Below are positions 37,301 to 41,918 of a stretch of DNA of 64,000 nt, piece by piece (position 1 is the stretch's first letter; each line of letters opens with the position of its first letter). A program made the position numbers and the translations under genes. Source of the DNA: Tubulanus polymorphus (lineage: Eukaryota; Nemertea; Palaeonemertea; Tubulaniformes; Tubulanidae); contig NC_134034.1 in NCBI RefSeq assembly GCF_964204645.1, positions 868,001-932,000 of the forward strand, written 5' to 3'. Below the pieces are notes generated by a model. The model saw only the letters and a program-made list of their open reading frames with translations. It had not been told where the DNA came from and ran no database searches.

Positions 37301-40300
37301 GCGATGTCGAAGTCGTGGGTGTTTTACTGTAGTTATACACCGTATACAGGACCCTATCACACAGCGTTAGCCTACCTCATAGCTATATTCATCTCATACG
37401 TGGCGCCAATATTCGCCATCATTTACAGGTAAAGAACATCATGGGAAACAGTTAGGTTTAAGATCAGTTTAAGACCAACTTAGTTCTATAACCAACATAC
37501 ACCTTAAGACTAGTCTTTGGATTTTAGACCACTTTTGGACCTAAGTCTCCATTATGGAATTGGCCACTGTCACTTAGAGTCTTATTGAGTCATTGTACCA
37601 CAGAGTTGGGTCCTGATCGCAGAGTATCGTTGACGATACAACTACTTGGAAACATGTGCAAGTCTCCAGCACTGGTTGGGCGAACAAAACTATGGTGTTT
37701 GCCTACTAGTCTTCTTTAAAACTGAGGTGGTCTTAAACTGGTCTTAAATCTAAGCCACATATGGGCAACTGATCCCTGATTGGCAAACAAACCATTTACA
37801 GGACATCACGTGCCATAATTCTAAGATGATCTGGGACTGTTGTTGAATCTATGCCATACCTGAACATATCGTGCATCTCTCTGTATTTTCAGTATTTCAT
37901 TGGCACAGAAATTAGAATTACCGACTCTTACTAACGACAGATACAAATTCGGATTGTTAGTTTTTACGAGTTGGGATCATTCTTTAGTGAACGAAGCCGC
38001 CGCAGAAAATCTGTCCAATACAATTACAAACCTCGTCACGGTGAGTTGAAGTAGGTTTCGGTAGGTCCTACACTAATTCGGGACTTGAATTTTCTTCTGG
38101 TGCGTTCGTTTTGACCGGAATATTCCATCTATTCGTTCAGCGTCAAAACGAATCATTGTCCCTTTTTCAGGAAAACATCCACGAATTTAAAGCTAAAGCG
38201 AATATCAAACAGCGCAGTAAAAAACAACGATACTTGATCATATTTAGACGGGTTGCCGCCTGGATTATAACATGGTGAGAGACACATCGTAAACAACTTA
38301 TCACTAGGGGGCGTGTTGTAGTGATCATGCTCACGGCTAGGGCGTGTAATGGTAACATTAACTACAAGGGGCATGTAGTTATCAGATTTATCGCTAGGGG
38401 CGTGTAATGATCAGGTTCAATGCCAGGGAGAGTAATATATTATTAGGGGGCCTGGTGTTAGTACTTTATATCGATTAACATTGCAGTATTCTGATTGGTG
38501 GAGGATGTTCGACTATCATCTATGTAGTAATGTTTGTGAAATTGGAACAGTTAGTGACGGATTGGACCGGGGATGAACAACACTTCCTCAGCGTCTACTG
38601 CGTCATCATTATCTTCCAGACTATTAATATCATCGTTCCGAAATGCGTTACACAGGTCAGTACTCCCCCAATAAAAAACCCTCTGAAAACCCCCTGTTTC
38701 GCTCCCGGCAGGTGTGGTGGGTCTGTAAGGGACACTCAATCGAAAAATCAAACAAAATTTACCAGCCAAATAAATAAATAATGGGGACAATCCCTATTTT
38801 AAGATAAAAAAACCCCTCTGAATCGCCCACCCTCTCTCTTCTCTCTCTACAAAGTACTCAACGACACTTGACAATTCCGATGTACAAAACGCTAAGGTTC
38901 TTAGTGAAGTAGGAAGGAGATGAAGAAATTCTCCTAGTTGTGGAAGTGGTTGTTTCACAAAAAGTGCTCAACGACACTTGATGAATTCAGTGTGTCCACC
39001 ATGCGGTACACACTGACACAAAGGTTACCTCAGTGATCTCTCATCATTTCTCATTTCTGTGTGTTTGTAGTTGCCTAAGATGGAGAGTTACGCGTCTGGT
39101 AAAGAAGAGATCAATGTAACTGTAGCTCGTATTTATCTGCTCAGACTCGTCAATTTATTCAGTTTAGTCGCATCGCTTTATCAGAAAGTCAAAGAGGTAT
39201 TAATCAACGAGGCCGCTATCAGGGGGTAGAACTAGAAACCTGCCGCCTTCCTATTAAGGTTCGCCCTACTCGTCAAGATAGAGATTGTTGAAACCTAGCT
39301 GTAGTACCCTATTATTTCCTTACACTTGGATATCGACCACACCACTATATCAGATAGAGTTAGAATCCTGCTGCCCGCTCTATTGAGGTCGCTCTTTTCG
39401 TCATGACAAAGATTGTTAAAACCTATACTCTAGAACCCAACCTTTCCTAACTCTTGGATAACTCTCGATAGGGTATCCGTAGCATAGTAGAATTTCGGTC
39501 TTTTAAGTGAGTGTTCCTGTTTATTGCTGGAATATTTGCCTAACTGCATGGATTTTCGATATATTTCCAGAACAATGCGAGTCAATGTCCGGGAACGGTG
39601 ATTGGTCAAGAGTTTTATAAACTGGTCATACTGGACACAGTGACGCATGTAATCATTAAAACATTCTCTCCATCAGTATTAAACATTGGACCCAGTTTTA
39701 ACCCAGCTTGAGTAGATTCTTAACTCGCAATGTGAGACTGGGTCCTAGACTGGGTTCTGGACTCAACCAGGAGTCAAATTAAACCCATATGATTATATTC
39801 AGTTTTTTCCCATTCAGACTTTAAGTACAGTGTTCATCAATTTCGCCGTTTATTACTGGACGAAGAAAAAGGTCGAATTTCGTATTTCGAAAGAGGTTTT
39901 AGCCGTGGTTTACAAACAAGCTCTTATATGGGTGAGTACTGAGACAAGGGGGTAGGGCATCTACAAACAAGCTCTTACATGGGTGAGTACTGAGACAAGG
40001 GGGCAGGGCATCTACAAACAAGCTCTTATATGGGTGAGTACTGAGACAAGGGGGCAGGGCATCTACAAACAAGCTCTTATATGGATGAGTACTGAGACAA
40101 GGGGGCAGGGTATCTACAAACAAGCTCTTATATGGGTGAGTACTGAGACAAGGGGGCAGGGTATCTACAAACAAGCTCTTATATGGGTGAGTACTGAGAC
40201 TAGGGGGCAGGGTATCTACAAACAAGCTCTTATATGGATGAGTACTGAGACAAGGGGGCAGGGCATCTACAAACAAGCTCTTATATGGGTGAGTACTGAG

Positions 40301-41918
40301 ACAAGGGGGCAGGGCATCTACAAACAAGCTCTGATATGGGTGAGTGAGTACTGAGACTAGGGGGCAGGGTATCTACGAACAAGCTCTTATATGGGTGAGC
40401 ACTGAGACAAGGGGGCAGGGCATCCACAAACAAGCTCTTATATGGATGAGTACTGAGACAAGGGGGCAGGGCATCTACAAACAAGCTCTTATATGGATGA
40501 GTACTGAGACAAGGGGGCAGGGCATCTACAAACAAGCTCTTATATGGATGAGTACTGAGACAAGGGGGCAGGGCATCTACAAACAAGCTCTTATATGGAT
40601 GAGTACTGAGACTAGGGGGGGGGGGGGCAGTGTATCTACAAACAAGCTCGTGACTGTGGGTAGGTTTCTGCATGCTGTGAGAAAGAATCAGATGTTGCCG
40701 CTCTGTGTTTCAGATAGGGATGCTGTTCTGTGTTTCAGATAGGGATGCTGTTCTGTGTTTCAGATAGGGATGCTGTTCTGTGTTTCAGATAGGGATGCTG
40801 TTCTGCCCAATTCTACCCTTGATCGGCGCCGTTTCGTTGGTCGTTTTCTTCTACGTTAATTATGCAGTTGTCATGGTAACGTGTCGTCCGCCATTAAAAC
40901 GATGGAACCAATCACGTCACAGCACGTTCTTCTACTATTTGTTATTGATAATGAGCGTGATATTAGTTTTGTTGATGGCCTTCATTCTGGACAGGTAAAT
41001 ATCAGCAAAATATTATCTCTCAGCCAGTGGTCTCTGTAGGTCAGTGGGATAAGGCGTGATGATGTTGCATTCACTATCAGTGCCGCAAGTGGGTTCGAAT
41101 CCTGCTGGCTGTTTAGGGCAACACTCCAAAGGCCGTGGTCCCATCCTGAGATTAAATACACAATCCAAGGGTTCAGTCATTGGGAAACCAAAATCCGAAC
41201 ATCGTAAAGACGACACAAACGAACCAAACCAAACCCACTCAGCCCATCCCATGAAGGGCCATGTCATTGTGGAAACATGTTACATGTTTCAGCTGTATAC
41301 ATTTCCACGGCTTCATGAATTTTGTTTTCTTGTTTCAGTCGCGGTAACTTTCTATATCTGGACACGGCTTTAGAAGGTCCGTTCCGGGGACAGCGCCCCC
41401 TATCGGTATTAACCGATTACATCGAGAGTCAGGCCGCTGTCTGGGTGGCGACACTGGTCGAATGGATGACGTCAGTTTTCGCGTTAATGACCGTTTTCAT
41501 ATTCATGATGTAAGTAACTGTATCGCCACGAGGGGGCGTAGCAGTTAAATCACGACCCCAAGTTCACTGATCGTCAGACCTAGCGGGGTTTAGGGAGGAG
41601 GCCGTCTTTGCTATGGATTAGTTAGCCCTAAATCACCAAGCAATTTGAGGGATTTATGAAGGCAGTCATCTTTTTGCGGAAGGGACTTATGTGAGATGAA
41701 ATCGGTAGTAGGTCATTCGTATGACGTCATAGGAGGATTTTAATCGGCCATGTTTTATTGCGGAGGTTTTGTGTTGTATATTTTGTAGAGTAATAGTCGG
41801 TTATCAGTTCATGAGGATTAAATTGGAACGATCACAGCGACACCTATACAGCAGAGAACTCAATGACGAACGACTGGAAAACAAGCAACTTATACATAGA
41901 ATACATCAACTCGAGTGA
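33585..41918 (+). CDS. Transmembrane channel-like (TMC) protein, 5' end not found
   Basis: TMC proteins are multi-pass membrane proteins; TMC1/2 belong to the hair-cell transduction channel. Exons: 33585-33668, 34401-34658, 34978-35223, 35305-35419, 35592-35670, 35929-36083, 36207-36291, 36410-36482, 36765-36937, 37298-37428, 37893-38040, 38171-38274, 38487-38655, 39071-39196, 39571-39648, 39818-39931, 40789-40994, 41339-41509, 41789-41918. All phases agree, giving 880 aa plus an unseen start. The N-terminus is disordered with 39 Gln. Family marks: GFGSGVVSFFLYCRWLILMN, then VWFGSTVLPTAIYF; HTALAYLIAIFISYVAPIFA; FTSWDHSLVNEAA; and the TMC-domain signature CPGTVIGQEFYKLVILD. Next come VYKQALIW joined to IGMLFCPILPLIGAV, FFYYLLLIMSVILVLLMAFI and a charged tail ending RIHQLE. 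The donor after 35419 (GTTGAG) is weak. Repeat arrays sit on both splice sites of the 39932-40788 intron and on the stop codon. Confidence 0.93.
34520..34636 (+). repeat. Uninterrupted (CAG)39 encoding polyglutamine in TMC
   Basis: 39 consecutive CAG codons are in frame with the TMC exon 34401-34658, preceded by CAC CAG GCT and followed by GATACTGACGATACG (DTDDT). No CAA interruption is present, which favours length instability. Confidence 0.95.
37440..37790. repeat. Dispersed TTAAGACCAGTCT-type element in TMC intron
   Basis: Contains AGATCAGTTTAAGACCAACT, GTTCTATAACCAAC and a second half with GGTCTTAAACTGGTCTTAAA, ending in GGGCAACTGATCCC. It belongs to the family at 11480-11815. Confidence 0.6.
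39911..40660 (+). repeat. 51-bp array duplicating a TMC exon end and splice donor
   Basis: About 15 units, first copy in the exon (39911-39931) and the rest in the intron. Unit: TACAAACAAGCTCTTATATG, then GGTGAGTACTGAGACAAGGG and GGCAGGGCATC. Each copy repeats the codons for YKQALIW followed by a GTGAGT donor. Eight of the first ten copies keep GT (GTGAGT or GTGAGC). Copies near 40070, 40223 and 40431-40584 read GGATGAG and lose it. The unit is 17 codons; the first intronic copy has an in-frame TAG (in GGGGTAGGG). A 4-bp GTGA insertion near 40340 breaks frame. Confidence 0.97.
40698..40805 (+). repeat. 25-bp array duplicating the TMC acceptor and exon start
   Basis: Four copies of TGTGTTTCAG followed by ATAGGGATGCTGTTC, giving candidate exon starts at 40714, 40739, 40764 and 40789. 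Only 40789 continues into the conserved IGMLFCPILPL frame. Upstream choices add 25, 50 or 75 nt; the 75-nt choice meets a TAG after 17 codons. Confidence 0.95.
41020..41115 (+). mobile_element. tRNA-like SINE copy, family 2
   Basis: TAGGTCAGTGGGATAAGGCG (A-box region), TTCACTATCAGTGCCGCA and GTGGGTTCGAATCCTGCTGG (B box). It is the inverse-strand partner of the copy at 17495-17590. It is intronic in TMC. Confidence 0.7.

What the first reader, a model, noticed from the sequence alone, without database searches (positions are those of the whole stretch)
39911..40805. One TMC intron has both splice sites tandemly multiplied
The donor side (exon end plus GTGAGT) is repeated about 15 times in a 51-bp unit, and the acceptor side (TTTCAG plus exon start) four times in a 25-bp unit, at opposite ends of the same intron. 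Eight of the first ten donor copies keep GT. The 51-bp unit is 17 codons, so using the second or later donors could insert repeated YKQALIW-type peptides, except that the first intronic copy carries an in-frame TAG. All acceptors but the last shift frame or stop. The junction lies in conserved TMC sequence (ALIW-IGMLFCPILP). I know of no described case with both ends of one intron independently amplified; it could act as a splice-choice or decay switch, or be a tolerated accident.
Basis: partly seen in the sequence, partly recalled or inferred. Interest (0 to 1): 0.93.

Follow-up and report, generated by a model that had tools for sequence, protein, structure and literature searches.

The report
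Intron with repeated splice sites, both ends
In an animal genome rich in short tandem repeats, one intron of a TMC channel-type gene has had both of its borders copied several times; this looks like a tolerated double case of the "mirage" repeats already described in amphioxus rather than a new kind of switch, but it is a striking natural test of how splicing picks the right site.

Summary
The donor border of one TMC-gene intron lies in a 51-bp array (14 full copies plus a stub; 8 of 14 keep GT) and its acceptor border in a 25-bp array (4 identical copies). Only first donor plus last acceptor gives an open frame (1 of 32 combinations), so the repeats cannot add YKQALIW-type peptides.

The best reading is a double-ended "mirage": a minisatellite grown over an exon-intron border, a kind described in amphioxus and reported there not to disturb splicing. 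The window and one of two sampled 100-kb blocks have 10-12% of bases in arrays, and that block holds at least two more donor mirages (NAA25-like and Tudor genes). Tandem triples of a donor word are about as common genome-wide as the backward control (504 against 491 places), so donors are not specially amplified; an acceptor word exceeds its control (356 against 254), unexplained. Without extra copies the intron would be about 107 bp, so the two arrays need only be neighbours.

One oddity remains: the intron sits exactly one nucleotide away from its place in 4 of 4 paralogues read. Both borders shifted together, which redundant sites could have eased. No RNA was available.

The parts
39818..39931 (+). 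Upstream TMC exon, ends ...YKQALIW (phase 0 border TGG|GTGAGT)
   Evidence: Open frame after CCATTCAG; TMC match
39911..40649 (+). Donor-side array: 14 full copies of a 51-nt unit (21 nt exon end + 30 nt intron start) and a 13-nt stub; 8 copies with GT, 6 with AT
39932..39933 (+). GT of donor 1, the only donor compatible with an open reading frame
39953..39955 (+). In-frame TAG in the intronic part of copy 1, read by any transcript that uses a later donor
39932..40788 (+). The intron, 857 nt; about 107 nt if the extra copies are subtracted
   Evidence: Borders; subtraction by hand from the copy lengths
40702..40805 (+). Acceptor-side array: 4.2 identical copies of a 25-nt unit with TTTCAG|ATAGGG
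40787..40788 (+). AG of acceptor 4, the only acceptor compatible with an open reading frame
40789..40994 (+). Downstream TMC exon, starts IGMLFCPILP, ends GACAG|GTAAAT

Best explanation
It is a double-ended 'mirage'. In a minisatellite-rich region near a chromosome-scale contig's end, one tandem duplication process spread over the donor border of a short TMC intron and a second, probably younger one over its acceptor border. The extra copies are intronic decoys. Normal protein is made only when splicing joins the outermost donor (copy 1) to the outermost acceptor (copy 4); any other choice gives a stop, so such a transcript would be expected to be lost by decay. Shown here: the arrays, the frames, the TMC homology, no array at the same intron in the four paralogues read, further donor mirages in the same genome, and no excess of donor words in tandem. 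Inferred: that RNA uses the outermost pair, that decoys are tolerated rather than used, the relative age of the arrays, and the mutational mechanism (slippage or unequal recombination).
For: Arrays and copy-by-copy reading. 1 of 32 donor x acceptor combinations is open. TMC match across the junction. Introns of four paralogues at this place are 236, 104, 79 and 88 nt and TRF finds no array over their borders. Arrays are dense here: 6572 of 64000 bases in period >=10 arrays in the window, 12255 of 100000 in C2:8.0-8.1 Mb, 475 of 100000 in C1:5.0-5.1 Mb. Two more donor mirages in that C2 block: a 23-nt unit x19.5 at an NAA25-like exon end (Pfam NatB_MDM20 E 2.6e-14, 57 residues on 57 profile positions across the splice) and a unit of about 34 nt at a Tudor exon end (three-exon join: TUDOR E 8e-17; best PDB match TDRD1, aligned without a gap over that splice). 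Arrays lie within 100 bp of each other at chance level: window 2 seen, 0.79 expected, P 0.18; C2 2 seen, 1.87 expected. GGTGAGT tandem triples 504 places against 491 for the backward word, single words 24821 against 20814; GGTAAGT triples 180 against 161. Amphioxus precedent with regular splicing by RT-PCR (PMC3087553, passages).
Against: No RNA evidence that this gene is spliced at donor 1 and acceptor 4. From general knowledge (recalled), first-AG scanning would favour acceptor 1 and proximity to the intron would favour a later donor, so faithful use of the outermost pair needs explaining. Tandem triples of the acceptor word TTTTCAG exceed the backward control (356 against 254 places); I have no single-word baseline for it, and several listed places share spacings as members of one dispersed family would. 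The taxon is not identified, so a special property of this lineage cannot be ruled out.
Confidence: 0.8

Rival explanations
1. A regulated splice-choice or decay (poison) switch: decoy donors and acceptors divert a share of transcripts into stop-containing forms to set the TMC level.
For: 31 of 32 combinations stop; eight donors have near-identical words; copy 1 alone carries the TAG that ensures a stop for each later donor.
Against: No array at this intron in 4 of 4 paralogues read; tandem donor words are at about control level; 6 of 14 donor copies have lost GT; similar arrays sit in unrelated genes (NAA25-like, Tudor). Most ways of duplicating a border would give stops or frame shifts (inference).
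Confidence: 0.1
2. Assembly artefact: collapse or expansion of repeats created or altered the arrays.
For: Tandem arrays are error-prone in assemblies, and one amphioxus mirage was aberrantly assembled in a draft (PMC3087553, passages).
Against: 77 contigs, the largest seen 32 Mb, which suggests long reads (inference); copies differ by scattered substitutions and indels; both arrays are under 750 bp; similar arrays occur elsewhere.
Confidence: 0.04
3. The inferred borders are wrong: the true exons join elsewhere, so the arrays are plain intronic minisatellites beside the exons.
For: No transcript data.
Against: The joined protein aligns without a gap to two TMC sequences across W|IG, and the four paralogues read have an intron within one nucleotide of this place.
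Confidence: 0.04

Closest known systems
Amphioxus 'mirages' (Adh3, globins BflGb6 and BflGb9, TnC, PGBD5); passages of PMC3087553 and PMC3902484
   Same: Minisatellite-like tandem duplication of an exon-intron border; either the 5' or the 3' border; many copies keep AG/GT signals; units 10-72 bp in Adh3; length instability; reported not to disturb regular splicing.
   Different: In the globins the donor and acceptor cases are in different genes; in PGBD5 the repeats lie at exons 3 and 4, and the passages leave open which intron borders they share. Here both borders of one intron are amplified with unrelated units.
[quoted passage not shown] 1995; title seen in reference lists only)
   Same: Tandem repeat that multiplies donor sites.
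   Different: Details not read; I recall no acceptor array there.
Intron gain by duplication of AG/GT proto-splice sites (model discussed in PMC3087553, passages)
   Same: Duplication that copies splice signals.
   Different: That model makes a new intron; here an intron shared with four paralogues is enlarged.

Membership tests
Mirage (tandem duplication of an exon-intron boundary) | Tandem repeat unit spans an exon-intron border | tested here: met
   Donor unit 21 nt exon + 30 nt intron; acceptor unit 25 nt with intron end and exon start
Mirage (tandem duplication of an exon-intron boundary) | Several copies keep splice signals | tested here: met
   8 of 14 donors GT; 4 of 4 acceptors TTTCAG
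Mirage (tandem duplication of an exon-intron boundary) | Regular mRNA splicing not disturbed | not testable with these tools
   No RNA data
Mirage (tandem duplication of an exon-intron boundary) | Copy-number instability between alleles or cells | not testable with these tools
   One assembly only; the stretch has a single match in it
Mirage (tandem duplication of an exon-intron boundary) | Found in a cephalochordate (the taxon of the cases I read; not part of the definition) | tested here: inconclusive
   18S search not answered; COX1 search found nothing in the assembly
TMC gene family | TMC domain PF07810 | tested here: met
   67 bits against cut-off 25, profile 46-110 of 111; PDB TMC matches

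The most novel reading that the evidence does not exclude
Border redundancy drove an intron slide. In 4 of 4 paralogues read this intron is phase 2 (TG|GT...AG|G), while here it is phase 0 (TGG|GT...AG|A): one G moved from the acceptor side to the donor side. A one-nucleotide slide normally needs two compensating changes through a broken frame. An intron with spare donors and spare acceptors could carry old and new borders side by side and pass through without loss. Double-ended mirages would then be a mechanism for intron sliding.
Probability: 0.1. Interest if true: 0.75.

Novelty: new variant of a known kind. Interest (0 to 1): 0.45.

Why it matters
It gives one gene in which eight near-identical donors and four identical acceptors compete, with only one pairing productive: a natural test of exon definition, proximity and first-AG rules. 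It also suggests that splice-border duplication is not a curiosity of a few amphioxus genes but something a minisatellite-rich genome produces, and it offers a testable route for one-nucleotide intron slides. If only tolerated, it shows how little redundant splice sites disturb a conserved gene.

Tried and rejected
Peptide insertion by later donors: rejected, 28 of 28 such combinations stop at the copy-1 TAG. Donor-seeking amplification: not supported; GGTGAGT and GGTAAGT tandem triples are at or near the backward control. For the acceptor word the count is above control (356 against 254) and I could not settle why. Local clustering of arrays as a cause of the double event: not supported.

Limits of the mirage screen: 131 arrays (period >=10, TRF score >=50) in C1, C2, the window and four paralogue stretches. 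Among those with at least 1.9 copies, 12 arrays carried repeated strong splice words (7 in C2, 5 in the window, the window's donor array among them). I read nine stretches: six beside five arrays of that list and three beside arrays of L043 and L044 that are not on it. Of the other seven listed, the window's donor array is the finding itself, and I did not read C2:29396, C2:55833, C2:87168, W:21740 and W:47291 in that way; W:31369 I judged from reading frames only. My acceptor score does not list the window's own acceptor array, so the screen is insensitive to acceptor mirages. A later look for coding frames that run into arrays gave 246 pairs, of which the best 45 were shown; I followed few. 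Dropped: W:12140-12489 and L043:2744-2829 lie just beyond a donor, not over it; C2:68437 lies inside one open frame; C2:84952 showed no exon that I could recognise; W:31369-31611 has its donor words on the strand opposite to an EF-hand-like frame (by eye).

A Pfam scan of the short Tudor join (40 aa) found nothing. The longer join found TUDOR at 61.9 bits, and the same without the upstream exon at 54.0 bits, so the upstream exon itself adds about 8 bits; its border with the third exon was joined by eye. Three other TMC-profile loci (L012, L017, L022) were searched by a simple motif and gave no border that I could place. An earthworm metallothionein paper with intronic minisatellites (PMC12783039, passages) is not a border case. 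Taxon: 18S search not answered, COX1 search without a match; not pursued, because I could not compare an 18S with anything. Rfam scan of the window: 0 matches.

Full report
What is there. The window is C10:868001-932000 of a 267.8-Mb, 77-contig genome whose name I do not know. Between two exons of a TMC gene on the + strand lies an 857-nt intron (39932-40788; borders). Its first border lies in a 51-nt tandem array (39911-40619 by TRF) and its last in a 25-nt array (40702-40805). Copy by copy, the donor array has 14 full units plus a 13-nt stub. Eight units keep GT (1,2,3,5,6,8,9,10) and six read AT (4,7,11-14). The twelve units of exactly 51 nt have a mean pairwise identity of 0.962. The acceptor array is perfect over 4.2 copies, so it is probably the younger of the two (inference).

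Is it a gene border? The joined exons read ...VYKQALIW|IGMLFCPILP... and match Pfam TMC at 67 bits against a cut-off of 25 and two PDB sequences, transmembrane channel-like protein 1 and 2, without a gap at the junction. A string of partial exon readings from the rest of the gene matches the first of them at 8.9e-15; an N-terminal piece is also aligned but weakly (13.8 bits, i-Evalue 0.24). Of seven splice borders that I placed in this gene, the two borders of this intron lie in arrays and the other five do not; the gene's other borders were not determined.

What could be made from it. I joined each of the 8 GT donors to each of the 4 acceptors. Only donor 1 with acceptor 4 is open (1 of 32). 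Donor 1 with acceptors 1-3 stops at codon 56, 56 or 70. The 28 combinations with a later donor all stop at codon 46, the TAG at 39953-39955.

Paralogues. A genome search with the TMC profile gave 21 matches at E <= 1, some of them in this gene and 13 over the family cut-off, alone or with neighbours. I could place this junction in four paralogues (C7:5.40 Mb, C4:0.757, C4:3.94, C4:25.48 Mb); three other loci gave no border by a simple motif search. All four have an intron at this place, of 236, 104, 79 and 88 nt, and TRF shows no array over its borders. By hand, taking 13 extra donor units with their two small insertions and three extra acceptor units from 857 nt leaves about 107 nt, an ordinary length beside these. 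The two borders were therefore only about 100 nt apart, and "both ends of one intron" needs just two neighbouring arrays.

A one-nucleotide slide. In the four paralogues the intron is phase 2 (CTG|GTAAGT...TTCAG|GATTGG and the like). In the window gene it is phase 0 (TGG|GTGAGT...TTCAG|ATAGGG). The proteins align without a length change at the junction, so one G has moved from the acceptor side to the donor side. No copy in either array keeps the old form. I offer the idea that spare borders eased this slide only as the boldest reading.

How common are such things here? In period >=10 arrays lie 6572 of 64000 bases of the window, 12255 of 100000 in C2:8.0-8.1 Mb and 475 of 100000 in C1:5.0-5.1 Mb. 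The C2 block contains two more donor mirages. One has a 23-nt unit (19.5 copies) at the end of an exon whose protein runs on across the splice in NatB_MDM20 (E 2.6e-14). The other has a unit of about 34 nt at the end of a Tudor exon (TUDOR E 8e-17 for a three-exon join, of which the upstream exon adds about 8 bits; best PDB match TDRD1, aligned without a gap over that junction; nothing found with the short join). The screen behind these was partial and insensitive to acceptors, so two in 200 kb of arbitrarily chosen sequence, both in one block, is a minimum with very wide error. In an array-rich zone, where about 10% of bases lie in arrays, a border falls in one about that often if placement is blind, and both borders of one intron about one time in a hundred. 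Selection will lower this, but a double case is expected somewhere in the genome (arithmetic, inference).

Are donors sought out? Three tandem copies of GGTGAGT occur at 504 places, against 491 for the word read backwards (one search is the mirror search). Single words are 24821 against 20814, so per occurrence donors are slightly poorer in tandem. These are overlapping places; merged by hand within 5 kb, contigs C1-C4, whose lists are complete, hold 10 distinct arrays for the donor word and 15 for the control. GGTAAGT gives 180 against 161 places. TTTTCAG gives 356 against 254; without a single-word baseline, and with several places that share spacings like one dispersed family, I leave this open.

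Where. On the three contigs of known length whose lists are complete (C1, C2, C4), merged arrays within 2 Mb of a contig end number 6 of 10, 8 of 10, 6 of 12 and 6 of 20, against about 13% expected from length. This is a hand tally and one array may be in more than one list. The window lies 0.87-0.93 Mb from the start of C10, so it is in such a zone; the array-rich C2 block at 8 Mb is not.

Known relatives. The closest kind is the amphioxus "mirage". I read passages of PMC3087553 and PMC3902484. [quoted passage not shown] I found no text that clearly has both borders of one intron multiplied, in ten searches of the open library; for most hits I saw the listing only, the PGBD5 passages leave the point open, and most subscription papers are not held. 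The human 6-16 gene is a second precedent for multiplied donors, seen only as a title in reference lists.

Verdict. The best explanation is a tolerated double-ended mirage in a minisatellite-rich zone. The open points are which sites RNA uses, why the acceptor word is above control, and whether the one-nucleotide slide is linked.

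Noticed in passing
window 39931/40788 against L043, L044, L045, L046: The intron is phase 0 here but phase 2 in 4 of 4 paralogues read: an exact one-nucleotide slide of both borders.
   Followed up: partly
window 41898-42615: A third array in the same gene, 28-nt unit x25, begins inside the last open coding frame; its first copy contains the TGA that ends that frame (...LIHRIHQLE).
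   Followed up: partly
L042 (C2:8090001-8100000), about 8093730-8094176: Donor mirage in an NAA25-like gene: 23-nt unit x19.5; 17 of the 18 donor words that my pattern extracted keep GT, and the pattern missed at least one copy.
   Followed up: yes
L039 (C2:8060001-8070000), about 8062477-8062756: Donor mirage in a Tudor-domain gene, more degenerate, unit about 34 nt.
   Followed up: yes
window 45421-47475: A minus-strand gene with both S-Me-THD domains (PF06032, PF20906), a family I recall as mostly microbial, has an array over its last codons (45421-45657) and another at the start of the long reading frame (47291-47475).
   Followed up: no
L023-L042: Bases in arrays differ about 25-fold between two arbitrary 100-kb blocks (C1:5.0-5.1 Mb and C2:8.0-8.1 Mb).
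   Followed up: no
window 34520-34636 and 54742-54926: Perfect (CAG)39 in an open frame upstream of the TMC exons, and perfect (AT)92.
   Followed up: no
G000 C1, C2, C4: Tandem arrays found by word searches crowd within 2 Mb of contig ends (hand tally).
   Followed up: partly
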